64,000 nucleotides of DNA, taken from NCBI RefSeq assembly GCF_030323025.1, contig NZ_CP097329.1:465001-529000 (forward strand). Reading direction: 5' to 3'. Made by a program: the position numbers and the translations under genes. Position 1 is the first letter of the stretch, and each line of letters opens with the position of its first letter. Positions 3,631 through 25,208 of this stretch are shown here, piece after piece. This stretch comes from Pseudanabaena mucicola str. Chao 1806. GTDB taxonomy: Bacteria > Cyanobacteriota > Cyanobacteriia > Pseudanabaenales > Pseudanabaenaceae. The notes below the pieces were generated by a model. That model was not told the origin of the DNA and did not search any database. It was given only the letters and a program-made list of their open reading frames with translations.

Positions 3631-5898
3631 ATGAAAAAGCTATTACTCGTTGAATCTCCCTCCAAGTGCAAAACCATCCAAGCAATCCTTGGCAGTGAAT
3701 GGCAAGTAGAAGCTTCCTTTGGTCACTTTACGGAACTTGCTAAAGATGGTGAAGATAGCTTGGGCTTTACCATGCATTCAGATACCAACAAAATTGAATG
3801 TCGCTATCAATTGACTGAAGGTAAAGGACAACAGGTAGTTGCTAAACTACGTGATGCTGTGAAGAATGCATCAGAAGTCGTACTTGCTACCGATGGCGAT
3901 CGCGAGGGTGAGGGGATTGCATGGCATTTACAACAGCAACTGCATCTGCGTAATCCCAAACGCGCTGTCTATAACCAGATTACGCCCACGGCGGTTAAAG
4001 CAGCGATCGCCAATGCTCATCAGTTAGATTTGAACCTGATTTCGGCTCAGAGAGCGAGACAATGTTTGGATCGGTTGATTGGGTTTAAAGTTTCACCCCT
4101 TGTGCGTCGAACTAGTGGCGGTAGCTCGGCTGGTCGGGTGCAGTCGGTGGCTTTGCATATTGTCTGTCAGCGTGAACGGGAGATTACTGCTTTTGTGCCG
4201 ATTACTTACTGGTCGGTATGGACGGAATATGCTGAAGGCTTCACCGCTTTTTATGCGGGTAGTAGTGAGATTGAACCTGTGCTTGATGATCAGGATGTCA
4301 CCGATGATGCGGCGGAAGTGAATACGGAATCTACGGTGGAGTCCAAACGGGTATTGTCAGAAGCGGAAGCTACCAGAATTATTCAAGTAGCCCGCAATCA
4401 TCCCCACATCGTTCGCGAAGCTACGGGTGTCACTGCTCAGAAATCACCATTGCCGCCTTTCATCACCAGTTCGCTCCAGCAAGCTGCCTCAGTGAGATTA
4501 GGGCTATCGCCTGAAGAGACGATGAAGGTAGCTCAAGAGTTGTTTGAGGGTGTCGATTTGCCAAACGGTCGCAAGGGTTTGATTACCTATCACCGCACTG
4601 ATAGCACTAATCTCGCGCCTGAATTTTGTGCTGAGGTAAAAGAATGGCTATCAAAGCACGATCCTGATAATGTCCCCAAGAAAACTACTCGTCATCGCGA
4701 ACAGGCGACTGCTCAATCCGCCCATGAAGCGATTCGTCCTACTTATTTGAGTATTACTCCGAAAACGGTTAGAGACCATCTCAGTGCGAAGCAACATCAA
4801 CTCTATGAGTTAATCTGGCGCAGAGCCGTGGCTTCTCAATGTGCGAATGCTTTAATTCAAAAAAGTCGAGTGATTATTCAGGCTGGTTCGACGCTCTGGC
4901 AAACTAGGGGTAGTATTCTCACCTTTGCGGGTTATACGCGCTATTGGAATGATTTGAGTAAGGATAAACATATTCCTGCGTTAACAAGTGGTCAGACTTT
5001 GGCTTTGGCAAATGCAGGTTTTACGCAGAAACAAACTCAACCTCCTGCTAGGTATAGCGAGGCGAAGTTAGTGCAGGTACTAGAGCGTCAGGGTGTGGGT
5101 AGACCGAGTACGTTTGCAGCGATCGTTAAGACACTTAAGGATAGAACCTATGTGTTACTCAAAGGTAAGGTTCTCGAACCTTCGGCTTTGGGAATGTCTA
5201 CGGATGATGTGCTGCATAAAACTTTCCCTGATTTGCTCAGAGCCGATTTTACCGCAGGGATGGAGACGACTTTGGATGAAATCTCGGTGGGTAAGTTAGA
5301 GTGGCAAAGCTATTTGATTGGTTGGCATCAGTCCTATTTTCAGCCGATGTTAGCGAGGGCTTATACAAATCTCGGTGCGGATTTACAGCCAAGTAATCGT
5401 AAAAATGAGCTTTCAGATGTGGCTTGTCCTACTTGTAGTCATCCGCTCAGTAAGATTCCTTCTAAGAAGGTGAGTGGTGGGCATTTTCTCAAGTGTGAGC
5501 ATGGCTGTGAGAATCTAGTGATGTTTTGGAGCGATCGCCGTAATCAGTGGGAGATTCCTCAACCGAAGGGAGAGAATGCAGTGACGGTGGAAGTGACTAG
5601 TTTTGCTTGTCCTGTCTGTGGTAAGCCTTTGGCTAAGTTTCCATATACTAAGGATGGTGTGGATAAGGTGATGTTGAAGTGTGCGGATGTTCAGGCTCGG
5701 CAGCGCAAGGATCATGCGGATGTGGTCTTTTTCTGGTCTTCTCAGGAGAAGTGGTGGTCGAAGAAGTTTGGTGATCTAGATGAATCGGCTAAGCCGAATT
5801 TGGGTAAGGGTTCAAGTGGGAAAGAAAAGAAAGCTGGTCAGGGAAAACCTAAACAGACTGGTAAAGTGGCTAAGCCTAGTCCTAAAAAGTTGTCTTGA
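3631..5898 (+). CDS. topA: Type IA DNA topoisomerase
   Basis: DNA topoisomerase I relaxes negative supercoils through a 5'-phosphotyrosine intermediate. The TOPRIM domain opens the protein (LLVESPSK, Glu8, then ATDGDREGEG at residues 86-95 with the paired acidic residues). The active-site tyrosine is Tyr320 in GLITYHRTDS. Two C-terminal zinc ribbons follow, starting at Cys599 (CPTC) and Cys660 (CPVC), and the protein ends in a lysine-rich tail. At 755 residues it is somewhat shorter than the usual cyanobacterial housekeeping enzyme and may be an accessory copy. Its last 122 codons, starting at the HIP1 octamer at 5531-5538, recur almost unchanged at 16299-16666 fused to an mfd fragment. Confidence 0.95.
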   Translation: MKKLLLVESPSKCKTIQAILGSEWQVEASFGHFTELAKDGEDSLGFTMHSDTNKIECRYQLTEGKGQQVVAKLRDAVKNASEVVLATDGDREGEGIAWHLQQQLHLRNPKRAVYNQITPTAVKAAIANAHQLDLNLISAQRARQCLDRLIGFKVSPLVRRTSGGSSAGRVQSVALHIVCQREREITAFVPITYWSVWTEYAEGFTAFYAGSSEIEPVLDDQDVTDDAAEVNTESTVESKRVLSEAEATRIIQVARNHPHIVREATGVTAQKSPLPPFITSSLQQAASVRLGLSPEETMKVAQELFEGVDLPNGRKGLITYHRTDSTNLAPEFCAEVKEWLSKHDPDNVPKKTTRHREQATAQSAHEAIRPTYLSITPKTVRDHLSAKQHQLYELIWRRAVASQCANALIQKSRVIIQAGSTLWQTRGSILTFAGYTRYWNDLSKDKHIPALTSGQTLALANAGFTQKQTQPPARYSEAKLVQVLERQGVGRPSTFAAIVKTLKDRTYVLLKGKVLEPSALGMSTDDVLHKTFPDLLRADFTAGMETTLDEISVGKLEWQSYLIGWHQSYFQPMLARAYTNLGADLQPSNRKNELSDVACPTCSHPLSKIPSKKVSGGHFLKCEHGCENLVMFWSDRRNQWEIPQPKGENAVTVEVTSFACPVCGKPLAKFPYTKDGVDKVMLKCADVQARQRKDHADVVFFWSSQEKWWSKKFGDLDESAKPNLGKGSSGKEKKAGQGKPKQTGKVAKPSPKKLS

Positions 5899-6058: not shown

Positions 6059-9000
6059 ATGGTCGTAGGAACTAACTCTGCTAGTGAGTTATTGGAAACT
6101 GTTTATACTGCACTCCATCTTGATCAAGGTGAGCTTTTGAGTGCGGAATTTTCCCCTACCCAAGAAACTAATTTAGAACAGTGGCTAAATAAAGGGGACT
6201 GGTTATCACTTGCAAAGCAACTACAAGCCGAAAAGATTTTTTTTGTAAAAGACGATCCTGTTATAGTTTTTGCTAGCTCTAAATCTAAAAACGTTTCAGA
6301 CTTAAGAAAAATATTTAATGACGTTTGGTGCATGGCAAGACCTCAAAGGTTATTCCTCGCTACTGATGGAGAGTTAGCTGTATATGATTTGACAAAGCCT
6401 CCTGTTAGAACCGATGAAGACTGGGAAAAGAATAAACCTTTAGCCTTAGTTACAAAGATCTCTGATGTTGCTAGAGAATTAAAAAGCTATCGTCGAGGTA
6501 ATATAGAATCTGGAAAATTATTTAAAGAAAAACATTTTGGGAAAGATGATCAACGTGCGGATCAATCTCTAATTCGTAATTTAAAGATTGTTCGCGACAA
6601 TTTAACAAGCTCTATTTCAGGCAAAGAACTAGTGCCGAAATATGCTCATGCGCTGATAGGCAGATCTATATTTATTCGCTATTTAGAAGACAGAAAAATT
6701 CTTACAAAAGAGTATTTTGAGAATGTTGCAAAAAAACATAATAACCCCGAATGGAAATCAATACTTGATGCAAAACTGAACAAGCCAGACATTAATCAGG
6801 ATATGGGAAAGCGCTTATATCCAAGAGTTTTAGACAATAAAGAGTTTACATATGCTTTATTTGATCAGTTGTCAGAAGACTTTAATGGAGATATGTTTCC
6901 TTCCGATCCTGACGAGAGACAAGCAGTAGATGTTCAACATCTCAGATTACTACAAGGTTTTTTAAGAGGAGATGTAGATAGCCAACAAAGTCTCTTCTTT
7001 TGGGCATATAAGTTTGACATTATCCCTATCGAGCTAATTAGTAGCATATACGAAGAGTTTTATCTGACCACAAATGCTGATGCAGGAAATCATGGAACAC
7101 ATTACACTCCAAGCTCATTAGTTAGATTCGTTTTATCACAAGTTCTAACACCAGATTGTCTTGAAAAAAAACCTAGAATTCTTGATCCATGTTGTGGATC
7201 GGGAATCTTTCTAGTTGAAGCTTTTAGAAGAATTGTGCGATATAGCTTCTTTAAGAAAGGTAAAATGCCAAGTCCAACAGAGCTTAGAACAATTATCAGA
7301 GATCAATTAGCTGGCATTGAAATTAATGAAGAAGCAGTACGAGTTGCAGCTTTTAGCTTGTATTTAGCGCTTCTACATTTTCAAAAGCCCCCAGCAATTT
7401 GGCAACAGATTAAGAAAGGGCAACGTCTCCCCAGTCTAAAATATCAAGCTAATTCGATTAATGCTGGGGAAAAATTCAATAACTTAATTGAAGCAAATGC
7501 TTTTGATGTTGCAGAAAAAGTTAACGATGAAGATGTATTGAATAAGTTTAGTAGCAATTGTGCTGATGTTGTAATTGGAAATCCTCCTTGGGGGCAACCT
7601 AAAAAAGGTGATAAAGCAGGAGCATTTGCTTTGCAGAAAGGACTTGATTGGTGTGAACAAAACAATTATCCAGTTGGGGATAAGGAAAGATCACAGGCTT
7701 TTATATGGAAAACTCTTGATTTCCTGAAAGATGGTGGTGTTGCATCTTTACTTGTTTCTACTGGAGTATTTTTTAAACATCATGAAAATAGCCAGAAATT
7801 CCGAAATCAATGGTTATCTTCAATCAAACTAATAGAAGTTATCAACTTCTCTCATGTTAGAGATATTTTTTTTAGTGGCGCAATTTCTCCATTCGCTTCT
7901 GTAGTTTTCCAAAAATCCTCTACAGTTGATCCTCAGTATCAATTAGTGAACTATTTTTCAGCCAAGAAATCATCTCAAGCTATTCGTTTAAAGTCAGTTA
8001 TTCTAAGTTGTTCAGATCTTCAAATGGTTCACCAATCAGATTTACTTGAGAATGATAAGCTTTGGAAAATCTATTGGTGGGGCAATCACAGAGATCTCGC
8101 TTTGATCAATAATTTACAACTCAACCCGTCTCTCGCAAAATTTTGCGACCCTGAAAACTCAGGGAGGGGATTTGAAGAAGGTTCAGGACAATCATCGATT
8201 GGCAATATTTTAAACTATAAGGAACTTCCTACTAAAGAATTTAAAAAATATGGAAGCATTAATAAGAAATCACTAAAGTCTGTCCCGCTAAAAGTAAATC
8301 GCAGGGGAAAGAGTGAGGGCTTATATTTTGGAAAGCGTATTTTAGTAAAGCGTGGTATTACTCAGCAGTCTTTCCCAAAAGGACAAATTATTTCACGCTT
8401 AGAATCAGAAGAATTTTGTTTTCGGCATTCTATTTACTGCATTAAACTTGCTCAGCCAGATGATTGGAAATATAAGATTATTTTGGCAATTCTATGGTCA
8501 TCACTTTCTCGATATTATTTTTTCCTGACTACTAGTACTTGGGGAATGTGGCATCATGAAATTCATTATCAAGAATTACTAGATTTACCAATTCGGCTTC
8601 CTGATTCTCAGGAGAAAATAGATCAAATAGTTAATATAGTTGACCAACTCAACAGCGTAGATTCATCGCATCAAAAAACTTCGAGATTAAGAAATAAGAG
8701 CCAACTAGAAATAAATATTAATACAAATATACCAAATCATAAAAACTCATTGGAAGATATAACAGCTCTCGAAGATAAGCTTGATGAAGCTATATTTGAT
8801 TTATATGAACTCAGAATATCTGAGCGTGATTTGATTCGCGATATGTGCGATATTGGTATCGAATTTTTCTACAATGAAATAGAAAGTCAAGCTGTTAAAC
8901 CAGTTATAACAAGAAACCCTAAATGTAAGTATGGGCTTCTACAAACGACCTCATCTCTCAATGACTCTGATCTACCAGTTGACCTTAAAAGTTACCTAAA

Positions 9001-9382
9001 GATTTTACTAAATGCTTGGAATCGAGAATTATATCCAGAAGGCGAATTCAGTTGGCGAATAATCCCCTCTGATCAATCAACAGCAATGTTGTGTGTTGTT
9101 TTGTCTACACAAGAAGTAGGACATATTCCCCAATTTCTAGATAATGATGAGGATGCTTGGGTGACAGTCCTCAGTGAACTTAATGATGCCTTGTTAGTTC
9201 CGTACAAGAGTAATCGCGTCTATATTGATGGAATTGTTCGTGCTGTCACAGATACTGACATCATCATTATTAAACGTAATGAAAAAAGACTATGGACAAA
9301 AAGTATGGCTCGTGAGGATGTAGAGGCAACTCTTCTTCAAGCAATTAACTTACAGGAGACTAGACAGGGTATTTCAGTATGA
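6059..9382 (+). CDS. N6-adenine DNA methyltransferase (type IIG-like)
   Basis: A large class I methyltransferase of about 1,108 residues. The AdoMet-binding motif I is DPCCGSGIF near residue 376, preceded by GTHYTPSSLVRFVL. The catalytic motif IV is NPPWG near residue 508. The long N-terminal region (about 350 residues) and long C-terminal region fit the Eco57I/type IIG-like architecture, in which the C-terminus recognises DNA. I see no obvious PD-(D/E)XK triad in the N-terminus, so restriction may lie in the next gene, which overlaps by 4 bases (ATGA). The start is either ATG 6059 or an in-frame TTG at 6050; ATG is chosen because the upstream ribosome site is weak for both. Base composition is AT-richer than that of topA, suggesting separate acquisition. 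Confidence 0.85.
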   Translation: MVVGTNSASELLETVYTALHLDQGELLSAEFSPTQETNLEQWLNKGDWLSLAKQLQAEKIFFVKDDPVIVFASSKSKNVSDLRKIFNDVWCMARPQRLFLATDGELAVYDLTKPPVRTDEDWEKNKPLALVTKISDVARELKSYRRGNIESGKLFKEKHFGKDDQRADQSLIRNLKIVRDNLTSSISGKELVPKYAHALIGRSIFIRYLEDRKILTKEYFENVAKKHNNPEWKSILDAKLNKPDINQDMGKRLYPRVLDNKEFTYALFDQLSEDFNGDMFPSDPDERQAVDVQHLRLLQGFLRGDVDSQQSLFFWAYKFDIIPIELISSIYEEFYLTTNADAGNHGTHYTPSSLVRFVLSQVLTPDCLEKKPRILDPCCGSGIFLVEAFRRIVRYSFFKKGKMPSPTELRTIIRDQLAGIEINEEAVRVAAFSLYLALLHFQKPPAIWQQIKKGQRLPSLKYQANSINAGEKFNNLIEANAFDVAEKVNDEDVLNKFSSNCADVVIGNPPWGQPKKGDKAGAFALQKGLDWCEQNNYPVGDKERSQAFIWKTLDFLKDGGVASLLVSTGVFFKHHENSQKFRNQWLSSIKLIEVINFSHVRDIFFSGAISPFASVVFQKSSTVDPQYQLVNYFSAKKSSQAIRLKSVILSCSDLQMVHQSDLLENDKLWKIYWWGNHRDLALINNLQLNPSLAKFCDPENSGRGFEEGSGQSSIGNILNYKELPTKEFKKYGSINKKSLKSVPLKVNRRGKSEGLYFGKRILVKRGITQQSFPKGQIISRLESEEFCFRHSIYCIKLAQPDDWKYKIILAILWSSLSRYYFFLTTSTWGMWHHEIHYQELLDLPIRLPDSQEKIDQIVNIVDQLNSVDSSHQKTSRLRNKSQLEININTNIPNHKNSLEDITALEDKLDEAIFDLYELRISERDLIRDMCDIGIEFFYNEIESQAVKPVITRNPKCKYGLLQTTSSLNDSDLPVDLKSYLKILLNAWNRELYPEGEFSWRIIPSDQSTAMLCVVLSTQEVGHIPQFLDNDEDAWVTVLSELNDALLVPYKSNRVYIDGIVRAVTDTDIIIIKRNEKRLWTKSMAREDVEATLLQAINLQETRQGISV

Positions 9383-10203
9383 GCCGACCTCTGATTAGCA
9401 AGAAAAATTCATGGAATAATTTCGAGAAATGTGTTTTGGAAGTATTCGATATTGCATTAATGATGCTATATGAAAAACCAACTCTTCCGATAGAAGAGGA
9501 TAGTGTAAAAAGTGTTGACACTCTAAATCATCAATTAGATTGCTGTTTACCTCATGCCATCATGAAATGGGAGACGATTAATAATGCAGAAATTCCAACA
9601 ACTCCAAAACCAAATCTTCGTCAACAGCCAGATCTTAATAACAATCAAGTAATTAATGATTATGAGAGAACAAAACCTGATTTTCAATGGGAACTTAGGG
9701 ACAGAGCGGGAAGTAGGGACAATCTAAATTCAATTTTTATAAATTATGCGATTGAATGTAAGCGATTAGGGAAAGACTTATCTTCACGGAGAAATCTAAA
9801 TAAGGAATATGTTTCCAAAGGTATTCTTAGGTTTACAACAAACACACATCGTTATGGTCAATTTACTCCTTCGGGATTAATGATTGGATATGTCCAAAAT
9901 ACTGACTTACAGACTATTCTCAATGAAGTAAGCGATTTTACTTTATCTATTTCTTTACCTGAACCTTTACTTTCACCCAAAGGTTGGGAAAATGACGTTA
10001 GTAGATTAGATCATAAATTAGATAGACCAGATATTGAGCCTACACCTTTTGAATTAAGACACCTGTGGATAGATTTACGCCATCATTATCAACAACCATC
10101 AAGTTCTTCCATAAAAAAGGCTAGTACACGAAAGAAATCAACAGCGCAGAAACCTAAATCGTCAAAAATTAGACCCAATAAAGATTCTAGAGTTGCAGAA
10201 TAA
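9379..10203 (+). CDS. Putative PD-(D/E)XK nuclease partnered with the methyltransferase
   Basis: A 274-residue protein whose start codon overlaps the stop of the adenine methyltransferase gene, implying translational coupling. No family is recognised with certainty. The segment KPDFQWELRD around residues 109-118 followed by INYAIECKRLGK (Glu-Cys-Lys) is the D...ExK arrangement of PD-(D/E)XK nucleases. The C-terminal 35 residues are Lys/Ser-rich and look disordered. The context suggests the restriction half of a two-gene restriction-modification system, which is inference from operon structure and the motif. It could instead be a specificity or accessory subunit. Confidence 0.6.
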   Translation: MSRPLISKKNSWNNFEKCVLEVFDIALMMLYEKPTLPIEEDSVKSVDTLNHQLDCCLPHAIMKWETINNAEIPTTPKPNLRQQPDLNNNQVINDYERTKPDFQWELRDRAGSRDNLNSIFINYAIECKRLGKDLSSRRNLNKEYVSKGILRFTTNTHRYGQFTPSGLMIGYVQNTDLQTILNEVSDFTLSISLPEPLLSPKGWENDVSRLDHKLDRPDIEPTPFELRHLWIDLRHHYQQPSSSSIKKASTRKKSTAQKPKSSKIRPNKDSRVAE

Positions 10204-10302
10204 CAAATAAATTAGGCAACTTCAGAGATTAGAGGTTAGTCTAAATCTTATTTATAATCCTCTAACAAAATTCTTTGTTTCATGCGCCCTTAATCCCAAT
10301 CC

Positions 10303-10725
10303 ATGACATTCACAGCAGTCCTAGAGAATATAGCCCGATCGCCGATCGCCACAAAAATAGGCGAGAAACTGACAACAGCCAAAAGCATATCCCTATCAGG
10401 ACTATCCCGTTTAGGCAAAGGACTGGTTAGTACCCACCTATGTCAACAACAAACCAAACCATTAATCATCGTCACCGCCACCGTCGAAGAAGCAACCCGA
10501 TGGGCTTTACAACTCCAGTCAATGTCATGGCGCGTTTATCTATAATCCCTTGATACATTCCCCTACGAATCAGCCCAAATCGATCTAGAAACCGCTTGGA
10601 CAAGGATTGAGATATTAGCAGAACTGCTTGCCAAACCACAGCCTAACTTAGCGATCGCTACCACCATTAACGCGCTACAGCCCCATCCACCATCCACTTC
10701 GCATCTTTTTGAGCTTGCGTCATGA
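10303..10725 (+). pseudogene. mfd: N-terminal fragment of mfd
   Basis: The first 80 codons are nearly identical to the start of the mfd::topA chimera at 15335 (MTFTAVLENIARSPI...). Both resemble the N-terminus of the transcription-repair coupling factor Mfd. Relative to that copy, a net 3-base deletion at about 10544 creates TAA. The same frame then continues as SLDTFPYESAQIDLET and LLAKPQPNLAIATTINALQ before homology ends near 10700, and the frame closes at TGA 10723-10725. No downstream helicase domains are present, so this is a dead fragment rather than a gene. Its neighbour to the right is an orphan antitoxin on the other strand. Confidence 0.8.
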
Positions 10726-10740
10726 AAATTATTTTGTACA

Positions 10741-10959
10741 TTACCAATCCAGTTTATCTAGAGTTACGCCTTGTTCAATGGGTTCAGTTCGGGCTGAATT
10801 GATACTTTGAACCATTCCTTCGATTCCTCTCAGATATTCATCATCGCTGACATAATCGGATTGGTCTAAAATTTTAATTTCGTCTTTAGAGAAGCGATCG
10901 AGTAACCATAGAAATTTGTCGCTAACACTATCATCAATTTGTAGGGTGATTGTCCGCAT
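10741..10959 (-). CDS. Orphan RelB-like antitoxin
   Basis: A 72-residue protein starting MRTITLQIDDSVSDKFLWLL. This is a pattern of small cyanobacterial antitoxins with an N-terminal beta strand plus helix for DNA binding and a C-terminal toxin-binding tail (EPIEQGVTLDKLDW). A good ribosome site, AGGAG, lies 8 bases before the ATG. The RelE-type toxin that normally follows is absent: the strand downstream runs straight into the mfd fragment. It is therefore either an antitoxin left behind after loss of its toxin or a free-standing regulator. Confidence 0.65.
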   Translation of the reverse strand: MRTITLQIDDSVSDKFLWLLDRFSKDEIKILDQSDYVSDDEYLRGIEGMVQSINSARTEPIEQGVTLDKLDW

Positions 10960-11114
10960 AAGTTAACTCCTAATTTCTCTGTATAAATCACTTGCACACT
11001 GAGGTTTATAGTTTGATATCTTATCATCTCTGCCCTGAATCGCGATCGCTGTTTGACAAAAGTTGGCAATATTTGCCATAATTGAATTGTCAGAAATATA
11101 CATAACTACTAGCT

Positions 11115-11366
11115 ATGACTACAGTAAATATCTCTATTCCTGATTCTATGAAGGCTTTTATAGATGAGCAGGTTGCTAAGGGTGGCTACAGTACTACGAG
11201 TGAATATATTCGGCAGTTGCTGCGTCAAGAGGCGGAGAGGGTTGCTCAAGCGCGTTTGGAAACTTTGCTGTTAGAGGGTTTGGATAGTGGTGAACCAATT
11301 GAGATAAATGATGATTGGTGGCAACAGAAACGGATTCAACTTCTTGAGAGACTTCGCAAAAAGTAA
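11115..11366 (+). CDS. ParD/CopG-type antitoxin
   Basis: An 83-residue ribbon-helix-helix protein. MTTVNISIPDSMKAFIDEQV followed by GGYSTTSEYIRQLLRQEAER is the classic ParD pattern: a beta strand for operator binding, a helix, then a second helix entered through the TTSEYIR motif. The C-terminal part (residues 50-83) would bind a ParE toxin. No ParE gene follows; after 74 bases comes the HNH-endonuclease pair. The antitoxin is thus orphaned or acts on a distant toxin. Confidence 0.8.
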   Translation: MTTVNISIPDSMKAFIDEQVAKGGYSTTSEYIRQLLRQEAERVAQARLETLLLEGLDSGEPIEINDDWWQQKRIQLLERLRKK

Positions 11367-11440
11367 TGAGCAGTTTGCTTATTTGGATGAAGTTATAATG
11401 TATTTAATCAATCAAAATTTAGTGCTGTCTACGAGGCAAT

Positions 11441-11812
11441 ATGTCTGAGTCGATCGCTTTAGAACTTCCCGAACCTTTGGCAAAAAAAGTTAAGGAAATC
11501 GCTGCGCTCAATCGTCAGGGGATTGAGGAAATGCTGATTGAATGGATTGATCGCACTATTAATGAGATTCCCATAGATGCTTTGCCTGATGAACAGGTTC
11601 TGGCTCTTTGTAATTTGCAAATGGGTGAACAGCAGCAAAGGATTTTTAGCGATTTACAAGCTCGAAATAGTGAAGGATTGCTTAATGCACAGGAAGTTAA
11701 GAAGCTGAATGAGTTAATGCAGGTTTATCGTCATGGTTCGGTACGGAAGGCTAAGGCAATGCAGGTTGCGGTGATGCGTGGATTAATCCCTGCTTTGAAT
11801 GCTGTCTCATGA
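11441..11812 (+). CDS. Partner protein of an HNH endonuclease (copy 1)
   Basis: A 123-residue helical protein with an RHH-like opening (SIALELPEPLAKKVKEIA). It has a central acidic stretch with tryptophan and leucine, and a C-terminal helix EVKKLNELMQVYRHGSVRKAKAMQVAVMR. The same layout, including the final LNELM/LDNL...R...KA/KSQA pattern, recurs in the genes at 14551-14907 and 56054-56461, each directly upstream of an HNH gene. Its stop overlaps the HNH start (ATGA). The function is unknown. A DNA-binding antitoxin-like regulator of the HNH nuclease is the simplest reading, but this is inference. Confidence 0.65.
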   Translation: MSESIALELPEPLAKKVKEIAALNRQGIEEMLIEWIDRTINEIPIDALPDEQVLALCNLQMGEQQQRIFSDLQARNSEGLLNAQEVKKLNELMQVYRHGSVRKAKAMQVAVMRGLIPALNAVS

Positions 11813-12165
11813 GTCGTCCTTATATTTCGGTTGAGATTGATCGCAATGTTCGCAGTATGGCTAAAAACCGATGTGGCTATTGCCTTAGTCCTCAAAAGTT
11901 GGTCATGGCACGTCTAGAAATTGAGCATATCATTCCTGTTTCTAAGGGTGGCAGTAGTGAGGAGTCAAATCTTTGGTTAGCTTGTCCTATTTGCAATAGT
12001 CATAAAGCTGGCAAGATTGAGGCGATCGATCCAGTTACGAATGAGGTTGTGGCGCTATTCAATCCGCGTACTCAAGTTTGGGCGGCTTGCTTTCCCTCAA
12101 GCAACACTCAACACATTCAATTGAGTGAACAAATCCAAAATCACCTCTCTAACTACAGGTACTGA
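11809..12165 (+). CDS. HNH endonuclease, C-terminally truncated (copy 1)
   Basis: A 118-residue HNH nuclease. CGYC (residues 22-25) and CPIC (about 63-66) are the zinc-binding pairs, and IEHIIPVSKGG carries the HNH histidines. The two relatives in this window continue after FNPR...W with a domain ending in RA/V...L, but here that part is replaced after about residue 91. The last 23 codons are simply the antisense of the 3' end of the convergent cytosine methyltransferase gene (overlap 12097-12165). The nuclease core is complete, but the missing C-terminal domain makes activity uncertain. Confidence 0.8.
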   Translation: MSRPYISVEIDRNVRSMAKNRCGYCLSPQKLVMARLEIEHIIPVSKGGSSEESNLWLACPICNSHKAGKIEAIDPVTNEVVALFNPRTQVWAACFPSSNTQHIQLSEQIQNHLSNYRY

Positions 12166-13377
12166 TACCGAATTACCTAACTGACGATAAGCATGGGTAT
12201 CTTTAGGATGCAGGATAAAAGAGTCTGGAAATCCTTGTAATCTCGCACATTCTCTTGGTGTAAGTCTTCGTATTCTGCCATTATGGACTACGCCTAACTT
12301 ATGAGCATCACTAGATACAAGAGTAATCGAGATACTTTGAGGATCTAAAAACTTGAATACTTCAAAAGACATATTGCCAGCGACAGGATTATATCTACCC
12401 TCTCTCTCTTTGAGATAACCTTTGCAAATCAAACTATTCATAATCTCTGTAAGATTTTCATGATCAAAAAAGGTTTTAATTTCATCAATATTGAGCTTTT
12501 TGCCATCTTGGTGTGTACCAAATTTTTTCTTGCGCCTATTAGCAATTAACTCATTCATAAACTCAATTTCTAAATCATTACATTCCCCTTTAATTCCCAA
12601 TTCCCATGAATGGATTGAATTACCATTTCGATGATCAATTAATCGGTATCCATGGAGTTTGTTTGGATTATTGTCTGTGAATTTCAGCAATCTATTTGTA
12701 AAGTCTTGAGAACAATCATACTTAGCACTTGGATTTGCTTCTAAAATATCAGCAACAATTTTAGTTCTATTAGAATTAGAAAACAAATCAAATAATGTAA
12801 GTTGACTAAGAGATCGCTTAAATTCATGGGAATCAGTCGCACCCAAGTCAGATTTCAGAGATAAAATTGGCTGTTGATTGTAAATCCCTAAAATATATAC
12901 TCGGACACGATTTTGAGGAATGCCAAAGTTTGAACTATTTAAAATTAGATAAGACACCCCATAGTTTAAATTTTGTAATCGCTCAATAATTGTCTTGAAA
13001 GTACGTCCTTGATCATGACTAGTTAATCCCCGAACATTTTCCAGTAAAAATGCTTTTGGTTGATATTCGCTTAAAAGTTTCTCAATCTCAAAAAACAAGG
13101 TTCCTCTAGTGTCTACAAATCCTTTTTGTTTTCCAGCATATGAGAATGGCTGACAAGGAAAACCTGCAAGTAGAAAATCGAAATTCGGGAATTGCTTAAT
13201 ACTACAAATGTCACCCTCTAGCTTCTCTTTATAATTAAGCTCATAAGTCTCTTGAGCGTATTTATCTATTTCTGAAGACAATACACATTTAGTTTGAATG
13301 CCAAGCTCTTGCATCGCTTGCTCAAAGCCCAAACGCATCCCACCAATACCAGCAAATAAATCAATAAAATTAATCAT
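12097..13377 (-). CDS. C5-cytosine DNA methyltransferase
   Basis: A 426-residue methyltransferase with the family motifs in order: FIDLFAGIGGMRLGFE (AdoMet binding, residues 4-19), GFPCQPFS with catalytic Cys75, LLENVRG (residues 111-117), QNRVRV (residues 155-160), and a C-terminal RECARLQGFPDSF / QLGNSVSVPV. The target-recognition region (about residues 180-350) is unusually long and would set sequence specificity. Its start overlaps the end of the upstream nuclease gene by 8 bases, forming a type II restriction-modification operon. The 3' end overlaps the truncated HNH gene in a convergent arrangement. Confidence 0.95.
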   Translation of the reverse strand: MINFIDLFAGIGGMRLGFEQAMQELGIQTKCVLSSEIDKYAQETYELNYKEKLEGDICSIKQFPNFDFLLAGFPCQPFSYAGKQKGFVDTRGTLFFEIEKLLSEYQPKAFLLENVRGLTSHDQGRTFKTIIERLQNLNYGVSYLILNSSNFGIPQNRVRVYILGIYNQQPILSLKSDLGATDSHEFKRSLSQLTLFDLFSNSNRTKIVADILEANPSAKYDCSQDFTNRLLKFTDNNPNKLHGYRLIDHRNGNSIHSWELGIKGECNDLEIEFMNELIANRRKKKFGTHQDGKKLNIDEIKTFFDHENLTEIMNSLICKGYLKEREGRYNPVAGNMSFEVFKFLDPQSISITLVSSDAHKLGVVHNGRIRRLTPRECARLQGFPDSFILHPKDTHAYRQLGNSVSVPVVREVILDLFTQLNVLSVA

Positions 13378-14401
13378 TTAATTTTTCTTGAATGAAGTTT
13401 GCTAAAATTGCGATTTCTGCTTTTGAGTAAGCAACTGTGCAATCGCTAAAATTGCAGATAGTTCCGATAGCTGATGATCTTTGGAAATTCCCTGCACCAT
13501 CAATGACATAGGCTATCCAAAATCCATTATTGTTCATCAACCTAAAGCGATTTTCTGCTTGTCCAGATTTACGCTCAATCACACTATTGGTCGTCACCTG
13601 AAAACTAACTTCTATCCCTATTTTCTTTCCATTCTTTTGAACTACTACATCAAATGGCATTCCATCACTTTTGTCATAACCATTTAGAGTAATGGAACCG
13701 TTTCTAGTTAATTGATAATCTGGCGTTAGAAACCCTCGTAAAGTCTCTAATACATAAGTTTGAGCAATTTGTCCAAGACTATTTGTATTTGCTCCTGTCG
13801 TAATTCTGCTGACATACAAATATTTTTCACGAACATACTTATCAATTGCTATCTCATCACCGAGTAAAACACCGATTTCACATTTTTCTAAGGCAGCTAA
13901 ATGAGCAGCGTCTGAAGTTGCGCCATGCAAAAGAATCATGATCAAGTCTTTATACAATGGAGATAACGGGACTATTTTAGTGATTGAAACACCATCCATA
14001 TCTAGCTTTGTGTTTCCTATTCCACTTATAGGCAAAACTTGAAATTCATATACTTCAGTCTTTTCCCGAAAAACATACTGCATCACTCGCCGATTTGTAA
14101 CTGGATCAACGGCAAAGGTTTCTGTGAACTCTCTTCCCAATCGTTTAATTAATTCTCCTCCATAATCAGCAAGAATAACTAGATGTTTTAGAAACAAATT
14201 CGCCGACATTCCAGATGCTTGCAAAACATCAAAGATTTGATAGGGACTATCTCCCGACAGTTTTAGAATACTAATAAACCGATCTTGCGTTGCAATTAAC
14301 TTGGGAATAACACTCTCTGCGGCAACCGTTGCTTCTAATTCTTTCGGCCACCACTTGACCGCTTTTTTCTCCAGTTCTGTAAATGTACGTTTGTAATTCA
14401 A
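13370..14401 (-). CDS. Putative type II restriction endonuclease
   Basis: A 343-residue protein directly upstream of and overlapping the C5-methyltransferase, the expected position of the cognate restriction enzyme. I do not recognise the specific family. A PD-(D/E)XK-like site can be read at about residues 250-265: the acidic residue in DGMPFDVVV, then GIEVSFQ, with Lys in the spacer KNGKK. The N-terminal 60 residues (AAESVIPKLIATQDRFISIL) resemble a DNA-recognition helical region. It is assigned as a restriction enzyme mainly from operon position, so the substrate sequence is unknown. Confidence 0.7.
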   Translation of the reverse strand: MNYKRTFTELEKKAVKWWPKELEATVAAESVIPKLIATQDRFISILKLSGDSPYQIFDVLQASGMSANLFLKHLVILADYGGELIKRLGREFTETFAVDPVTNRRVMQYVFREKTEVYEFQVLPISGIGNTKLDMDGVSITKIVPLSPLYKDLIMILLHGATSDAAHLAALEKCEIGVLLGDEIAIDKYVREKYLYVSRITTGANTNSLGQIAQTYVLETLRGFLTPDYQLTRNGSITLNGYDKSDGMPFDVVVQKNGKKIGIEVSFQVTTNSVIERKSGQAENRFRLMNNNGFWIAYVIDGAGNFQRSSAIGTICNFSDCTVAYSKAEIAILANFIQEKLND

Positions 14402-14550
14402 TTTTGGATTTCCTGATTTACCTTTGATGGCAGTTTACCAAAAATTACGTCCTCACAAATCATGATGATACAAAAATGTCAAATTTTTAAGGATCGCCCA
14501 TAACAAGCTTGCTACAATAAACACAACTCACAATCTTCAAATCACAAACC

Positions 14551-14907
14551 ATGCAAATTATCCTAGAAGTCCCCGATCGCCTCGGCGAAAAACTACAAAG
14601 ATTAGGCGATCGACTCCCTGAAACCCTAGATCGCTTACTTCAAGACATTCCCACCACAGAAACGATCTCTTACCAAGACGATCGCCAAATTGTCGAACTT
14701 CTAGCAAGTCAACCCAGTCCTGAAGAAATCCTCGCCATCCGTCCCACACCAGCCTTACAAGCGCAGATGAGCGAGCTACTCGAACGCAACAAATCTGGAA
14801 GTCTTTCCCGAACTGAAGAAGCCGAACTAGATCGCTACTTACTCTTAGAGCATTGGGTAAGACTAGCTAAAGCCTATGCCTATAAACAATTACAGAAATC
14901 AGCATGA
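14551..14907 (+). CDS. Partner protein of an HNH endonuclease (copy 2)
   Basis: A 118-residue protein. Its opening, MQIILEVPDRLGEKLQRLGDRLPETLDRLL, is an RHH-like start. A linker (ELLASQPSPEEILAI) follows, then the C-terminal helix SLSRTEEAELDRYLLLEHWVRLAKAYA. The order matches the partner genes at 11441 and 56054, although sequence identity looks low. Its stop overlaps the HNH start by 4 bases (ATGA). The function is not known; the conserved coupling suggests that the two proteins act together. Confidence 0.65.
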   Translation: MQIILEVPDRLGEKLQRLGDRLPETLDRLLQDIPTTETISYQDDRQIVELLASQPSPEEILAIRPTPALQAQMSELLERNKSGSLSRTEEAELDRYLLLEHWVRLAKAYAYKQLQKSA

Positions 14908-15317
14908 GCTATGTATCAGTTCCCCTACGTCGGCTAGTCACCCAACGCGCTGAAGAACAGTGCGAGTATTGTCGATATCCTCAAGCAGCTTCTTTTTTTA
15001 CTTTTGAAATAGAACATATCATTGCTGAAAAACACGATGGCATCACCGAAGCCGAAAACCTAGCTTTAGCTTGTCCTTGCTGCAATCGTTTCAAAGGTAC
15101 TGACCTCGGTTCTATTGATCCTGAAACAATGCAGCTAACTCCATTTTTTAATCCTCGTATGCAGCAGTGGTCAGATCACTTTTGCCTAGAAGGAGGAAAC
15201 ATTCTCCCCCTCACTCCTGAAGGACGTGTCACTGCTAAAATCCTCCAATTTAACCTTCAGGAACGTGTTATCGAACGCGAACAACTCATTAGTATTGGGA
15301 AATATCCAGTACTTTAA
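14904..15317 (+). CDS. HNH endonuclease (copy 2, full length)
   Basis: A 137-residue HNH nuclease with both zinc pairs (CEYC at residues 20-23 and CPCC near 58-61) and the catalytic FEIEHIIAEKHDG. After FNPR...W it keeps the C-terminal segment GRVTAKILQFNLQERV..., which the truncated copy at 11809 lacks. Translation is probably coupled to the upstream partner gene. HNH proteins of this type are common in cyanobacterial genomes, often in multiple copies. The biological role of the pair (defence, TA-like or selfish) is not established. Confidence 0.85.
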   Translation: MSYVSVPLRRLVTQRAEEQCEYCRYPQAASFFTFEIEHIIAEKHDGITEAENLALACPCCNRFKGTDLGSIDPETMQLTPFFNPRMQQWSDHFCLEGGNILPLTPEGRVTAKILQFNLQERVIEREQLISIGKYPVL

Positions 15318-15334
15318 GAACTTCTTTAAACAAC

Positions 15335-16666
15335 ATGACCTTCACCGCAGTCCTAGAGAACATAGCCCGATCGCCGATCGTCACAAAAATAGGCGAGAAA
15401 CTGACAACAGCCAAAAGCATATCCCTATCAGGACTATCCCGCTTAGGCAAGGGACTGGTTAGCACCCACCTATGCCAACAACAAACCAAACCATTACTCA
15501 TCGTCACCGCCACCGTCGAAGAAGCAACCCGATGGGCCTTACAACTCCAGTCAATGCCATGGCGCGTCTATCTATATCAACCCCTTGATACATTTCCCTA
15601 CGAATCCGCCCAAATCGATTTAGAAACCGATTGGACAAGGATTGAGATATTAGCGGAACTACTTGCCAAACCACAGCCTAATTTAGCGATCGCTACCACC
15701 ATTAACGCGCTACAGCCCCATCTACCATCCACTCAAGTCTTCCAAAAACATAGCATCTATTTCAATATCGGTGATTCGCAATCGGTTAAATTACTTGCCG
15801 AGGCTCTGGCAAAATTAGGATATGTGGAAGTCAAAGAAGTAAAGGAATCAAAACAATGGAGCCGTAAAGGATTTAGTTTTGAAGTGTTTCCAGTTAATCG
15901 AAATCTACCCGTGCGCCTAAGCTGCAATCGCGGTACTGTCGAGAAAATCAGAGAGTTTGACCCCACTAATCCCAAAAGCTTCACTGACCTATCCAGCTTC
16001 GCGATCGCCCCTGTCGATTTGCATGAGTTTGTTACTTCTCATAAAGCCACATTGCTGAATTACTTACCCAAGAATTTTATTGTTGCCATTGATGAACCCG
16101 AACAATGTCAGAGCTATAGCGATCGCTGGTACGAAGCTGCGGATGAACTTTATCAAAATCAATCGCAAGCAGATACACCGAAACTGCATTGGGACTTTGC
16201 AAAGTGCATGACTGAGGCGAATAAGTTTCAGATGCTTCAACTTAGTAAGCGATCGCTTAAACCCAAACCAACGATCGCATCTCATCTCAACACAAACAGC
16301 GATCGCCGTAATCAGTGGGAGATTCCTCAACCGAAGGGTGAGAATGCAGTGACGGCGGAGGTGACTAGTTTTGCTTGTCCTGTCTGTGGTAAGCCTTTGG
16401 CTAGGTTTCCCTATGCGAAGGATGGTGTGGATAAGGTGATGTTGAAGTGTGGGGATGCTCAGGCACGTCAACGCAAGGATCATGCGGATGTGGTCTTTTT
16501 CTGGTCTTCTCAGGAGAGGTGGTGGTCGAAGAAGTTTGGTGATTTGGATGAGGCGGCTAAGCCAAATTTAGGTAAGGATGCAACTAGGAAGGAGAAGAAA
16601 ACTTCTCAGCGCAAACCGAAACAATCCAGTAAAGTGGCTAAGCCTAGTCCTAAAGAGTTGTCTTGA
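15335..16666 (+). CDS. Chimeric ORF: Mfd N-terminus fused to TopA C-terminus
   Basis: An open 443-codon frame made of two unrelated genes. Residues 1 to about 321 resemble the N-terminal (UvrB-like damage-recognition) region of Mfd: TALLIVTA-type ATPase-like strands, YQPLDTFPYES, then GFSFEVFPVN and EKIREFDP. Residues 322-443 are the C-terminal 122 residues of the TopA at 3631, including the second zinc ribbon (CPVCGKPLARFPYA) and the Lys-rich tail. The switch falls exactly in GCGATCGC at 16299-16306, matching the HIP1 at 5531-5538 in topA. Neither parent's catalytic centre is present. It is a recombination product whose expression is unknown; annotate with caution. Confidence 0.85.
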   Translation: MTFTAVLENIARSPIVTKIGEKLTTAKSISLSGLSRLGKGLVSTHLCQQQTKPLLIVTATVEEATRWALQLQSMPWRVYLYQPLDTFPYESAQIDLETDWTRIEILAELLAKPQPNLAIATTINALQPHLPSTQVFQKHSIYFNIGDSQSVKLLAEALAKLGYVEVKEVKESKQWSRKGFSFEVFPVNRNLPVRLSCNRGTVEKIREFDPTNPKSFTDLSSFAIAPVDLHEFVTSHKATLLNYLPKNFIVAIDEPEQCQSYSDRWYEAADELYQNQSQADTPKLHWDFAKCMTEANKFQMLQLSKRSLKPKPTIASHLNTNSDRRNQWEIPQPKGENAVTAEVTSFACPVCGKPLARFPYAKDGVDKVMLKCGDAQARQRKDHADVVFFWSSQERWWSKKFGDLDEAAKPNLGKDATRKEKKTSQRKPKQSSKVAKPSPKELS

Positions 16667-16680
16667 TAAGCAGGGCATTA

Positions 16681-17070
16681 TTAGGGTGTTGGAGCAGGTT
16701 GGATGTGCTTCCCAGCATAGAAAACAACTACTTTTAATTGAGTTTCGTCGGGAACGTAAAATACTCTATCTCCTCCAGTCACTTCATATTCCCATACGCC
16801 TCTATATTTTTTGCCTTTTAACGGAAATACCCGTCCAGGCTGTCTCGTTATTGGTGCTGTCTGTAAGTCTTTGTAGCAACGTCTAGCGTTTTCAGGATTT
16901 CGCTGGATCAGGGCTTCCCAGTCCCGATTTATGCGGCGATTTTTAGCTACTACTAGCCAAATAGTTTCTATTTTGGGTGTATTAGAAGTCTCAGGTGAAT
17001 CAGGAGTTGTCAGCTTTACTTCTGGTGGTTCGATATTTTTGTTTATCTCTTCGGTGATGTTTTCTGACAT
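16681..17070 (-). CDS. RelE/ParE-like toxin
   Basis: A 129-residue protein. The N-terminal 40 residues are acidic and Pro/Thr-rich and look disordered. Residues 42-129 have the RelE-like arrangement: a helix with NPENARRCYKDLQTAP, then strands GRVFPLKGKKYRGVWEYEV, GDRVFYVPD and LKVVVFYAGKH. Such toxins usually cleave mRNA at the ribosome. One base separates it from the upstream Phd-like antitoxin gene, so they form a TA operon. The unusual N-terminal extension may be a mis-set start, but it opens at a plausible ATG. Confidence 0.7.
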   Translation of the reverse strand: MSENITEEINKNIEPPEVKLTTPDSPETSNTPKIETIWLVVAKNRRINRDWEALIQRNPENARRCYKDLQTAPITRQPGRVFPLKGKKYRGVWEYEVTGGDRVFYVPDETQLKVVVFYAGKHIQPAPTP

Positions 17071-17071
17071 A

Positions 17072-17530
17072 TCAAGATTGCTTGATTTGAGTAAAGGCTG
17101 CTTCTAGGTCTGGATTGGCGATCGCTAAGGCGCTCTCATACCATTCATGGATAACTGCTTCTAATTCATTCCATGCTTTGTCGAAATTTTTTGTTTCTTG
17201 TAAGGCAACTGAGCGATAGGCTGAGATCACTTCATTAATAAATTCATTTAATTCGTCTGCGTCAAATACTCCAAGCCAACCATAGGGATGCTCGGCTCCA
17301 ATTTTTTGGTTTAGCAATAAACGGAAGGCTGTATTGAGAAGTTCAACAATTTCGCGGCTATGTTGGGCGGTTTTTACAAATAGAGCTACGTCTTCTCGCC
17401 GCAGTAGGGCAAAGGATTGGTCGTTGCGGGTAATGGTGATGGGATGTTCTAGGGCTTTGTCTAAGATTCTGCCTGGTTGACGATTTAGCTCGGTGGCTGT
17501 GACTAGTTCATCTGAGTAAATGGAGTTCAT
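17072..17530 (-). CDS. Phd/YefM-like antitoxin with a C-terminal extension
   Basis: A 152-residue protein. Residues 8-50 (VTATELNRQPGRILDKALEH, ITITRNDQSFALLRREDV) are the Phd/YefM DNA-binding fold, which recognises the operator of its own operon. About 90 further residues follow, helical and acidic, longer than the usual short toxin-binding tail. The RelE-like toxin gene follows after 1 base on the same strand. The extra C-terminal region may hold a larger toxin-binding surface. Confidence 0.75.
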   Translation of the reverse strand: MNSIYSDELVTATELNRQPGRILDKALEHPITITRNDQSFALLRREDVALFVKTAQHSREIVELLNTAFRLLLNQKIGAEHPYGWLGVFDADELNEFINEVISAYRSVALQETKNFDKAWNELEAVIHEWYESALAIANPDLEAAFTQIKQS

Positions 17531-17706
17531 AGTTTTTCGATTGGCAGTTTTATTTGAGCGTGTGGGGAAATTGTGGTGATTATTTGGAAGGGTGTAGTAT
17601 AAATGTACGTACTATTCTACGTTGTTTGCTTTCTAAGTCAATGGCAAGTTATTTTCTAAGTTCTAAAATTTAGAGGATAAATCAGGGCTTGGGAGTAAGT
17701 TTAGTT

Positions 17707-17991
17707 ATGATGGTTGTGATAAATCCAGTTAAATCCTTAGAAAATATGAAAGAACAAGATTTGTTAAATCGGATCTACTCTAGTCCTAGAGTGATGGTGG
17801 GAAAGCCTGTCATTAGAGGGACTCGGTTATCTGTTGAGTACATTCTAAATCTGCTGGCTCATGGTGCAACTGTGACGGAGATTTTGGATGAGTATGAAGG
17901 TTTGGTTGAGGCGGATATTAGGGCTTGTTTACTGTTTGCTTCTCGTGCGTTGGAAAGTGCAAGTTTTATGCCTTTGGCGGAGATTGCTTAG
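17707..17991 (+). CDS. DUF433 antitoxin
   Basis: A small DUF433 protein. NRIYSSPRVMVGKPVIRGTRLSVEYILNLLAHGATVTEILDEY is the diagnostic DUF433 core, with GKPVIRGTR and a winged-helix-like fold thought to bind DNA. It is usually paired with a DUF5615 PIN-like toxin, as here, where the toxin starts on the base after its stop. An in-frame TTG at 17689 would add 6 residues; the ATG at 17707 is preferred because GGGAG lies 11 bases before it. Confidence 0.85.
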   Translation: MMVVINPVKSLENMKEQDLLNRIYSSPRVMVGKPVIRGTRLSVEYILNLLAHGATVTEILDEYEGLVEADIRACLLFASRALESASFMPLAEIA

Positions 17992-18348
17992 GTGCGGTTT
18001 TTGGTAGATGAAAATACGGGTGTTGTGGTTGCGCGTTGGTTACGCAATCAAAATCATGAGGTTTTCTCAGTTTATGAGGAGGCAAGAGGGACTGATGATG
18101 ATGAAATTCTACAAAAGGCTTGGGATGAGAATTGGATTTTGATTTCTTGTGATAAGGATTTTGGTGAAAAAGTCTATCGGGAACGAAGACTACATCATGG
18201 TGTGATTTTGCTTAGGCTTGAGGATGAGCGTAATGCTAATAAAATCAATGTTTTACAAAGTTTGTTAGAAAATTATGCGGGGCAGTTAGCGGATAGTTTT
18301 GTTGTGGTTACTGAGAAACAGGTTAGATTTGCTAGGGCTTTGTCTTGA
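17992..18348 (+). CDS. DUF5615 PIN-like toxin
   Basis: A 118-residue PIN-like protein of the DUF5615 family. MRFLVDENTGVVVARWLRNQNHEVFSV supplies the first acidic residues, and TDDDEILQKAWDENWILISCDKDFGE supplies the later acidic pair and the strand with CDKDFG. The start is GTG at 17992, immediately after the DUF433 stop with no spacer, so expression should be translationally coupled. The pair is expected to be a toxin-antitoxin unit acting on RNA. The family is well known, but targets are mostly undetermined. Confidence 0.85.
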   Translation: MRFLVDENTGVVVARWLRNQNHEVFSVYEEARGTDDDEILQKAWDENWILISCDKDFGEKVYRERRLHHGVILLRLEDERNANKINVLQSLLENYAGQLADSFVVVTEKQVRFARALS

Positions 18349-24842: not shown

Positions 24843-24850
24843 TTTGGCTT

Positions 24851-25194
24851 ATGCCTGACAACACCGACTACCTCCAAGGCATCATCGAACGCCTCACCTT
24901 TCACTCGGAAGAGACAGGCTATACCGTAGCGCGGATAAAAGTACCCAAGGCTCAAGACCTAATCACCGTAGTCGGTAACTTTGCCAATATCCAAGCAGGA
25001 CAGACCCTTGCCCTAGAAGGCACATGGCGATCACGCATGGACAGATGCAGGAGTCAGAGTTAGAGGCGGCGATGGTTGCATTTAATAACAATGAGGCGGA
25101 TATCTTGCTCTGTAGGACGATTATTGAGTCGGGTTTGGACATTCCGCGTGTGAATACGATTGTGATTGAGTGGTTAGGTTGTTTTTTGAATTGA
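24851..25194 (+). pseudogene. Chimeric fragment: recD2 N-terminus joined to an internal mfd piece
   Basis: Bases 24851-25030 repeat the recD2 N-terminal fragment (MPDNTDYLQGIIERL...ALEGTWR). At GCGATCAC (25027-25034), one base off HIP1, the sequence becomes an internal Mfd helicase segment in another frame. It reads [16 protein letters not shown], then [19 protein letters not shown] and NTIVIE, and closes at TGA 25192-25194. Both parent genes are expected to carry GCGATCGC at the joint (recD2 fragment A does, and Mfd-type AIAHGQM encodes it). No functional product is expected. Confidence 0.8.
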
Positions 25195-25208
25195 AATTGA
25201 TAAAATTC

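What the first reader, a model, noticed from the sequence alone, without database searches (positions are those of the whole stretch)
15335..16666. Open mfd::topA chimera joined at HIP1
A 443-codon open frame fuses the Mfd N-terminal region to the last 122 residues of TopA, with the switch exactly in GCGATCGC that is also present in topA at 5531-5538. Keeping the frame open through the junction is notable. It could be an inert product or a new DNA-binding protein (damage-recognition-like fold plus a zinc ribbon).
Basis: seen in the sequence. Interest (0 to 1): 0.65.

Follow-up and report, generated by a model that had tools for sequence, protein, structure and literature searches.

The report
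Recombination scar fusing two plasmid genes
The open mfd-topA fusion is real, but it looks like a joint left where two defence-gene cassettes bordered by plasmid-type topA and mfd genes were joined end to end, and its open reading frame is probably an accident because a sibling strain has the same joint out of frame.

Summary
The 443-codon ORF at 15335-16666 is real: about 316 codons of a plasmid-type Mfd joined to the last 122 of TopA. The junction has three parts. Mfd homology stops at about 16267-16271; a ~30-bp filler follows; TopA starts at HIP1 16299-16306. The filler is a unit of a HIP1-spaced intergenic repeat of Pseudanabaena. A same-species MAG carries the same joint at the ends of two contigs behind different cargo. 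That filler holds two consecutive repeat units, so the closed form is probably older.

In Pseudanabaena, topA and mfd frame an exchangeable slot (23 of 23 loci: same strand, topA first, 1.3-10.9 kb), often filled with defence genes. The chimera has an mfd-side cassette upstream and a topA-side cassette downstream, so it marks the joint between two such modules. Selection on the fused protein is not supported; the substitution test points weakly to relaxation but has little power. The chimera is ordinary; the topA-cargo-mfd slot with HIP1 joints is the more interesting finding.

The parts
15335..16666 (+). mfd'::'topA chimeric ORF, 443 aa
15335..16271 (+). mfd' half (UvrB-like N-terminal module of a plasmid-type Mfd)
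   Evidence: BLASTN/TBLASTN to full-length copies; PF17757 UvrB_inter residues 142-227; PDB 2b2n match
16249..16256 (+). HIP1 of mfd, the probable original mfd-side breakpoint
16268..16298 (+). filler: unit of a Pseudanabaena HIP1-spaced intergenic repeat
16299..16306 (+). HIP1 of topA, topA-side breakpoint
16298..16666 (+). topA C-terminal tail (122 codons plus stop)
3631..5898 (+). intact plasmid-type topA, left edge of the module array
   Evidence: Toprim and Topoisom_bac; 97% to plasmid TopA
5899..10302 (+). cassette A: type IIG restriction-modification enzyme plus 274-aa partner; fills the whole topA-mfd slot, as in G012 (L053, 95.9% over 4,380 bp)
10303..10698 (+). mfd' remnant, 132 codons, in-frame TAA at codon 81
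10699..15334 (.). cassette B: small genes, BanI-type restriction-modification pair (12097-14401, - strand), DUF-HNH pair (14551-15317, + strand) abutting the mfd start
16667..18003 (.). topA-side cassette (129-aa and 152-aa genes and the next small gene), same DNA as follows topA in L048 and L062 (1,337 bp, 95-96%)
25012..25170 (+). C-terminal mfd remnant (residues 804-856)
   Evidence: also in the sibling MAG, L125 11565-11723

Best explanation
The ORF is a recombination joint, not a gene that evolved for a purpose. In Pseudanabaena, plasmid-type topA and mfd border an exchangeable cargo slot in the order topA, cargo, mfd (shown). In this species such modules have been joined end to end, so the mfd end of one meets the topA end of the next: topA-cargo-mfd'::'topA-cargo-mfd (order shown within contigs; the complete array in the sibling is inferred). 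The original joint ran from the HIP1 in mfd, through two units of a HIP1-spaced intergenic repeat, into the HIP1 in topA, and was out of frame (shown in the sibling; that it is ancestral is inferred). In the window's copy the mfd half was later overwritten by recombination with another mfd copy, crossing over at CCCAAA. That changed the filler length and by chance put topA in frame (inferred). The product, if made, would be a stand-alone Mfd UvrB-like module with a floppy basic tail, most likely non-functional. Whether the first joint came from unequal crossing-over, fusion of two plasmids or loss of plasmid backbone is not resolved.
For: Same joint with an identical second filler unit at the ends of two contigs of a same-species MAG, behind different cargo, out of frame and ending ...HKQRSP*. 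The sibling filler matches two consecutive units of repeat arrays in other Pseudanabaena. 23 of 23 topA-mfd loci have topA upstream of mfd on one strand with 1.3-10.9 kb between; where cassettes differ, the change lies close to the topA stop and the mfd start. The 843 bp ending one base before the chimera's ATG precede mfd in L038, L043, L048, L050, L062 and L125; the DNA after its stop follows topA in L038, L046, L048, L062, L070 and L071. Intact topA lies upstream of the joint on the same strand in both the window (9.4 kb) and L107 (6.1 kb); the sibling also has an intact mfd. A second HIP1 joint occurs in an mfd remnant of the sibling (L125 167-174). The mfd copies look like a recombining pool: 51.8% of informative site pairs are incompatible, and the three chimeras are not a clade. 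Private changes in the three chimeric mfd halves are 6 synonymous:18 non-synonymous against 67:80 in 22 intact copies.
Against: The substitution test is weak: Fisher p = 0.075 for the mfd halves, 0.034 after adding the window's topA tail; singly p = 0.19, 0.08 and 1.0. The broken remnant at 10303 (3:2) and five truncated copies (14:12) look like intact genes, so the test has little power. No in-frame stop has appeared in the aligned ~310 codons of any of the three chimeric mfd halves, although conversion from intact copies would keep them open. The sibling is a draft MAG; its two joint contigs end inside the topA tail and share their last 141 bases, which contain the whole joint, so the out-of-frame filler is effectively one observation, and the order of its modules beyond each contig is inferred. 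Of 7 distinct mfd' endpoints looked at, 2 fall at HIP1 (the joint as in the sibling, and L125); the window remnant/L124, L043, L058/L061, L060 and L062 do not. The reciprocal topA'::'mfd joint was not found in 26 genus genomes with one exact 20-base pattern. One origin for the three chimeric mfd halves is not ruled out by the tree, which is poorly resolved.
Confidence: 0.8

Rival explanations
1. The fused 443-aa protein is functional, a new DNA- or UvrA-binding protein made of the Mfd damage-recognition module and the TopA tail.
For: The frame is open; the mfd' half is complete enough to fold (ten-residue mean pLDDT 63-93 over residues 1-310) and resembles the separately solved Mfd N-terminal fragment 2b2n; it starts 17 bp after the HNH gene, as intact mfd does in plasmid ABRG53a, so it could be transcribed.
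Against: Out of frame in the same-species copies; no other in-frame copy seen among 57 relatives (listing cut short), 26 genus genomes or the species genomes scanned with one pattern; private changes 2 synonymous:8 non-synonymous in the window's mfd half (not significant alone); residues 307-345 and 386-442 modelled below pLDDT 50; only a three-Cys ribbon remains.
Confidence: 0.05
2. What is kept is not the fusion but the truncated Mfd N-terminal module, acting for example as a UvrA-binding decoy; the topA tail is incidental.
For: Three chimeric mfd halves and truncated copies in L043, L058, L060, L061 and L062 have no in-frame stop within the aligned mfd part; pairwise dN/dS is 0.15-0.19 among the chimeric halves, and private changes of five truncated copies (14:12) look like those of intact genes; the UvrB_inter domain is retained.
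Against: The dN/dS values are inherited from intact parents and close to those of intact pairs (median 0.13); the remnant at 10303 has a TAA, and TAG codons lie within the longer matches of the L062 and L043 copies; cut points differ between copies; exchange with intact copies explains open frames.
Confidence: 0.08
3. The joint formed by loss of plasmid backbone between mfd and topA of one circle, or by fusion of two plasmids, rather than by unequal crossing-over into a tandem array.
For: The plasmids of ABRG5-3 and CCNP1313 that carry the pair are circular, with topA and mfd on one strand, so a joint from mfd onward to topA would remove the backbone; plasmid fusion at HIP1 is described for Synechococcus (passages of PMC9239245 and PMC4390886).
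Against: The window and sibling hold an intact topA upstream of the joint, and the sibling also an intact mfd and a second contig with the joint, which suits an array of modules better than one collapsed circle.
Confidence: 0.3
4. Assembly artefact.
For: topA and mfd copies are similar enough to confuse short-read assembly.
Against: The joint with the same filler occurs in a single-contig 4.53-Mb genome and in a separate MAG; the filler is not part of the 23 mfd or 11 topA copies compared.
Confidence: 0.02

Closest known systems
HIP1-associated recombination in cyanobacteria (Akiyama 1998; Robinson 1997, as cited in PMC4390886 and PMC9239245; passages of those two read, the originals not seen)
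   Same: Breakpoints at GCGATCGC; joints between replicons or excision between HIP1 sites
   Different: Here the joint carries repeat units between the two HIP1 sites, and it lies between two gene-bordered cassette modules
Defence hotspots or islands bordered by core genes (for example Pseudomonas aeruginosa core defense hotspots, PMC10250203; search listing and start of abstract only)
   Same: Variable defence cargo between two conserved genes, exchanged with flanks kept
   Different: Borders are plasmid-borne second copies of housekeeping genes (topA, mfd), several per cell on different plasmids, and modules become joined through a fusion of the two border genes
Mfd N-terminal UvrB-homology module (PDB 2b2n)
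   Same: Domain content of the mfd' half
   Different: Arises from truncation and carries a foreign tail; no evidence that it acts on its own

Membership tests
Transcription-repair coupling factor (Mfd) | UvrB-like N-terminal module | tested here: met
   PF17757 at residues 142-227; PDB Mfd matches
Transcription-repair coupling factor (Mfd) | RNA polymerase-interacting domain, translocase motor and TRCF domain | tested here: not met
   Present in two intact plasmid-type Mfd proteins (PF02559, PF00270, PF00271, PF03461; L039 and L125) and absent from the chimera
Type IA topoisomerase (TopA) | Toprim and Topoisom_bac catalytic domains | tested here: not met
   Found in window 3631-5895 and not in the chimera
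TopA zinc ribbon | Four Cys ligands | tested here: not met
   Cys 348, 351, 372 only in the tail, with His383 possible; a three-Cys-one-His site is not excluded
HIP1-mediated recombination joint | Breakpoint within GCGATCGC on both parents | tested here: inconclusive
   topA side exact; mfd side at HIP1 in the sibling copies but 11-15 bp past it in the window copy
Defence hotspot with conserved borders | Different cargo between the same two border genes | tested here: met
   23 of 23 slots; PADLOC matches in 6 of the 9 slots from which large proteins were scanned with it (E limits 1e-5, 1e-15)
Defence hotspot with conserved borders | Cargo active against phage | not testable with these tools
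   Needs experiments

The most novel reading that the evidence does not exclude
Pseudanabaena plasmids use their spare topA and mfd genes as recombination arms of an integrase-free cassette platform. Defence cassettes are swapped by homologous recombination within the two border genes, and HIP1-anchored mfd'::'topA joints let modules be added end to end into arrays, each joint then serving as a new exchange site. The chimera is the reusable joint of that array.
Probability: 0.3. Interest if true: 0.62.

Novelty: new variant of a known kind. Interest (0 to 1): 0.37.

Why it matters
As a protein the chimera is probably nothing. As a scar it shows how cyanobacterial defence cassettes can be stacked: two spare housekeeping genes frame a slot, and breaks at the abundant HIP1 palindrome join one slot to the next. 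That would make a testable case for HIP1 shaping rearrangement, a role that is unsettled (PMC4390886, passages read), and it gives a way to find further defence genes by looking between topA and mfd on Pseudanabaena plasmids.

Tried and rejected
Single HIP1 switch: rejected by the parental alignment. Filler from elsewhere in the same genome: no other match within 3 mismatches in G000, though looser matches to HIP1-rich DNA exist. Selection test by pairwise dN/dS: uninformative because values are inherited from the parents, so private changes were used instead, and these have little power, since the broken remnant scores like an intact gene. Common origin of the three chimeric mfd halves by tree: poorly resolved, 1 of 24 inner branches well supported. 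Reciprocal topA'::'mfd joint: 0 of 26 genus genomes with one exact pattern. Viral collection: the 21-base topA HIP1 tail found in 0 contigs. Literature: Pseudanabaena/plasmid/topA/mfd (20 of 37 papers listed), transcription-repair coupling factor with cyanobacteria, plasmid-encoded and topoisomerase (no paper holds all four), defence hotspots (15 of 230 listed) and defence islands with cyanobacteria and topoisomerase (12 of 47 listed): no listed title describes this slot; that covers only the held library, these terms and the rows shown. The ABRG5-3 announcement (PMC5805894, whole text) says only that plasmids a and b share many homologous hypothetical proteins. Passages of PMC5101192 mention HIP1 once and neither mfd nor topA. 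Twenty other window ORFs were scanned with Pfam; no plasmid-transfer family appeared, so whether the window is an integrated plasmid stays open.

Full report
Observation. The ORF 15335-16666 (443 aa) exists. Its first ~315 codons match plasmid-type Mfd at 88-92% and its last 122 codons are TopA residues 634-755. The window is part of a 4.53-Mb single contig, G000:C1:465001-529000. The same DNA occurs as a shorter mfd remnant at 10303-10698 and as the 3' end of intact topA at 5530-5898. The genome's ordinary mfd is elsewhere (C1:1889980, 38% identical).

Junction. In most of 23 mfd copies the sequence here reads ...GAGCGATCGCTTAAACCCAAAGCCAATATTTTT with small variations; 19 of 23 have HIP1 at this place (L040, L045, L047 and L078 do not). 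The window follows it through ...CCCAAA and then reads CCAACGATCGCATCTCATCTCAACACAAACA before topA begins at AGCGATCGCC. So the topA side breaks at HIP1, but the mfd side does not quite. The filler belongs to a HIP1-spaced intergenic repeat: 6 of 26 genus genomes hold it within 3 mismatches, including G000 and the sibling, and the arrays in L045, L086 and L088-L090 show the units in the same succession. HIP1 is very common here: 87 sites in the window against 0.55 expected.

Same joint in a sibling. G058, labelled same species, has the filler and joint exactly on two contigs, C62 (15,870 bp) and C96 (5,884 bp). A scan of the species genomes (GTDB r220 set of 84,980 species) for the topA HIP1 tail not preceded by G returned two contigs, of those same lengths, in the MAG Pseudanabaena sp. 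M53BS1SP1A06MG, so I take G058 to be that MAG; the pattern is exact, and the tool may leave out the window's own genome. The sibling joint reads ...GAGCGATCTCTCATTCCCCAAACCAACGATCGC..., which is mfd's HIP1 followed by two consecutive repeat units (the first unit recurs within 2 mismatches in G012). There the mfd frame runs into ...HKQRSP and a TAA. The two contigs share their last 141 bases, which hold the whole joint, as assembly graphs do at a repeat, so the filler is one observation entered from two different mfd copies. Because the sibling filler is two neighbouring units of the known arrays, I read it as the older state, and the window copy as later overwritten from an intact mfd across CCCAAA (inference).

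Frame. Joining every HIP1 of three intact mfd genes to every HIP1 of topA gives in-frame fusions in 7 of 18, 9 of 24 and 9 of 24 cases. The pair used here is out of frame when joined directly. An open frame in one of the copies needs no selection.

Context. Loci were taken from relatives of the genus and from complete plasmids of Pseudanabaena sp. ABRG5-3 and P. galeata CCNP1313. Joints apart, every locus in the TBLASTN table with both genes on the fetched stretch has topA upstream of mfd on one strand: 23 of 23, leaving out L057, a duplicate of L056, and plasmid pPg_01, where the pair spans the record's start. Some of the 23 have a decayed border gene (topA in L043 and L056; mfd cut short in the window, L043, L058, L060, L062, L063 and, by the joint, L107), in part because contigs end. 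The slots measure 1,314-10,867 bp, and where cassettes differ the change lies close to the topA stop and the mfd start codon. Cassettes recur across slots: the window's slot 5899-10302 is also the slot of G012 (95.9% over 4,380 bp), and a PstI-type fused restriction-modification gene occurs in L050, L052 and L058. PADLOC matched large proteins in 6 of 9 slots scanned (window, L050, L053, L054, L060, L107; none in L045, L051, L055); the L054 and L107 helicase matches and the L060 repeat-protein matches may be to shared domains rather than to whole systems, and two cargo proteins in front of the C96 joint had no match. Pfam adds caspase proteins in L038, L046 and L063, a CHAT protein with a MoxR-like ATPase in L045 and a dynamin-like GTPase in L039. 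In PLSDB this Mfd type (60% identity or more) was found in 6 of 158 matching records, all six Pseudanabaena.

Why this is a module joint. The 843 bp before the chimera, ending one base before its ATG, is the unit with the DUF-HNH pair that precedes mfd in L038, L043, L048, L050, L062 and L125 (shorter pieces in L061 and L063). The 961-1,337 bp after its stop is what follows topA in L038, L046, L048, L062, L070 and L071. So the chimera sits exactly where one module's mfd end meets another's topA end. In the sibling, C62 is collinear with window 1-5898 (97%) and carries intact topA, cargo, then the joint. C96 carries other cargo and the joint. C108 matches window 10485-15319 (98.9%). C151 carries an intact mfd and then window 24845-32924 (99%). 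The window itself keeps, to the right, only an mfd C-terminal remnant at 25012-25170. A second joint exactly at an mfd HIP1 is present in C151 (L125 167-174), where the window and C108 continue as mfd. Against a general rule, the five other distinct mfd' endpoints looked at are not at HIP1.

Selection. Private changes in the chimeric mfd halves: window 2 synonymous and 8 non-synonymous, C62 1 and 7, C96 3 and 3; 22 intact copies together 67 and 80 (Fisher p = 0.075 for the three pooled). Adding the window's topA tail (0 and 1; 27 other tails 19 and 18, first 85 aligned codons) gives p = 0.034. Two copies cut by contig ends (L046, L049) were left out of the intact baseline. The controls that should be relaxed are not: the broken remnant gives 3 and 2, five truncated copies 14 and 12. 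So this is weak evidence for relaxation and none for selection on the fusion. Pairwise dN/dS is no guide, since it is inherited: 0.15-0.19 among chimeras, median 0.13 among 231 intact pairs.

Recombination. Across 27 mfd copies 51.8% of pairs of 132 informative sites fail the four-gamete test, with slightly fewer failures at short range (8 of 500 permutations as low); repeated mutation can add to such failures. The three chimeric halves do not group (0% of 200 bootstrap trees), but the tree is nearly unresolved and does not rule out one origin.

The protein, if made. AlphaFold2 with a 24-row alignment gives mean pLDDT 69.7. The Mfd module (1-304) is mostly confident; residues 307-345 and 386-442 are below 50. 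Only three cysteines remain in the tail. I would expect at most a stable fragment with no Mfd motor.

Verdict. The chimera is a real but probably inert recombination scar whose frame opened by chance. The slot and the HIP1 joints are the part worth following.

Noticed in passing
L125 (G058:C151) 167-174: An mfd remnant with the same TAA as window 10303-10698 breaks off exactly at an internal mfd HIP1 into other DNA, while the window and L124 continue as mfd: a second HIP1 joint.
   Followed up: partly
L043, L058, L060, L061, L062: Truncated mfd copies ending at different codons, with the frame open over the aligned mfd part; L058 and L061 share the same cut and following sequence.
   Followed up: partly
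P. galeata CCNP1313 plasmids NZ_CP112875 to NZ_CP112879: Five plasmids of one strain each carry a copy of the topA-mfd pair (decayed in NZ_CP112876); why several spare copies are kept is unexplained.
   Followed up: no
A1 alignment, plasmid-type versus chromosomal-type Mfd: Plasmid-type Mfd differs from chromosomal Mfd in the UvrB_inter region (RLSCNRGTVEKI against RIDWFGDEIERI), so its partner contacts may differ.
   Followed up: no
window 38380-39387 and 49030-50037: Identical 1,008-bp inverted repeats 9.6 kb apart; the second overlaps a transposase gene.
   Followed up: no
window 25886-26713 and 28494-29305: A duplication (86% and 99% identical blocks) of two small genes.
   Followed up: no
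window 50788-53259 and 59878-60873: A sulfatase and a formylglycine-generating-enzyme-like protein lie 6.6 kb apart on the same strand.
   Followed up: no
window 11441-12096 and 14551-15317: Two similar-looking DUF-HNH gene pairs border the BanI-type restriction-modification genes; in the sibling the first HNH frame is shorter (118 against 137 aa) and overlaps the methyltransferase gene (L124).
   Followed up: partly
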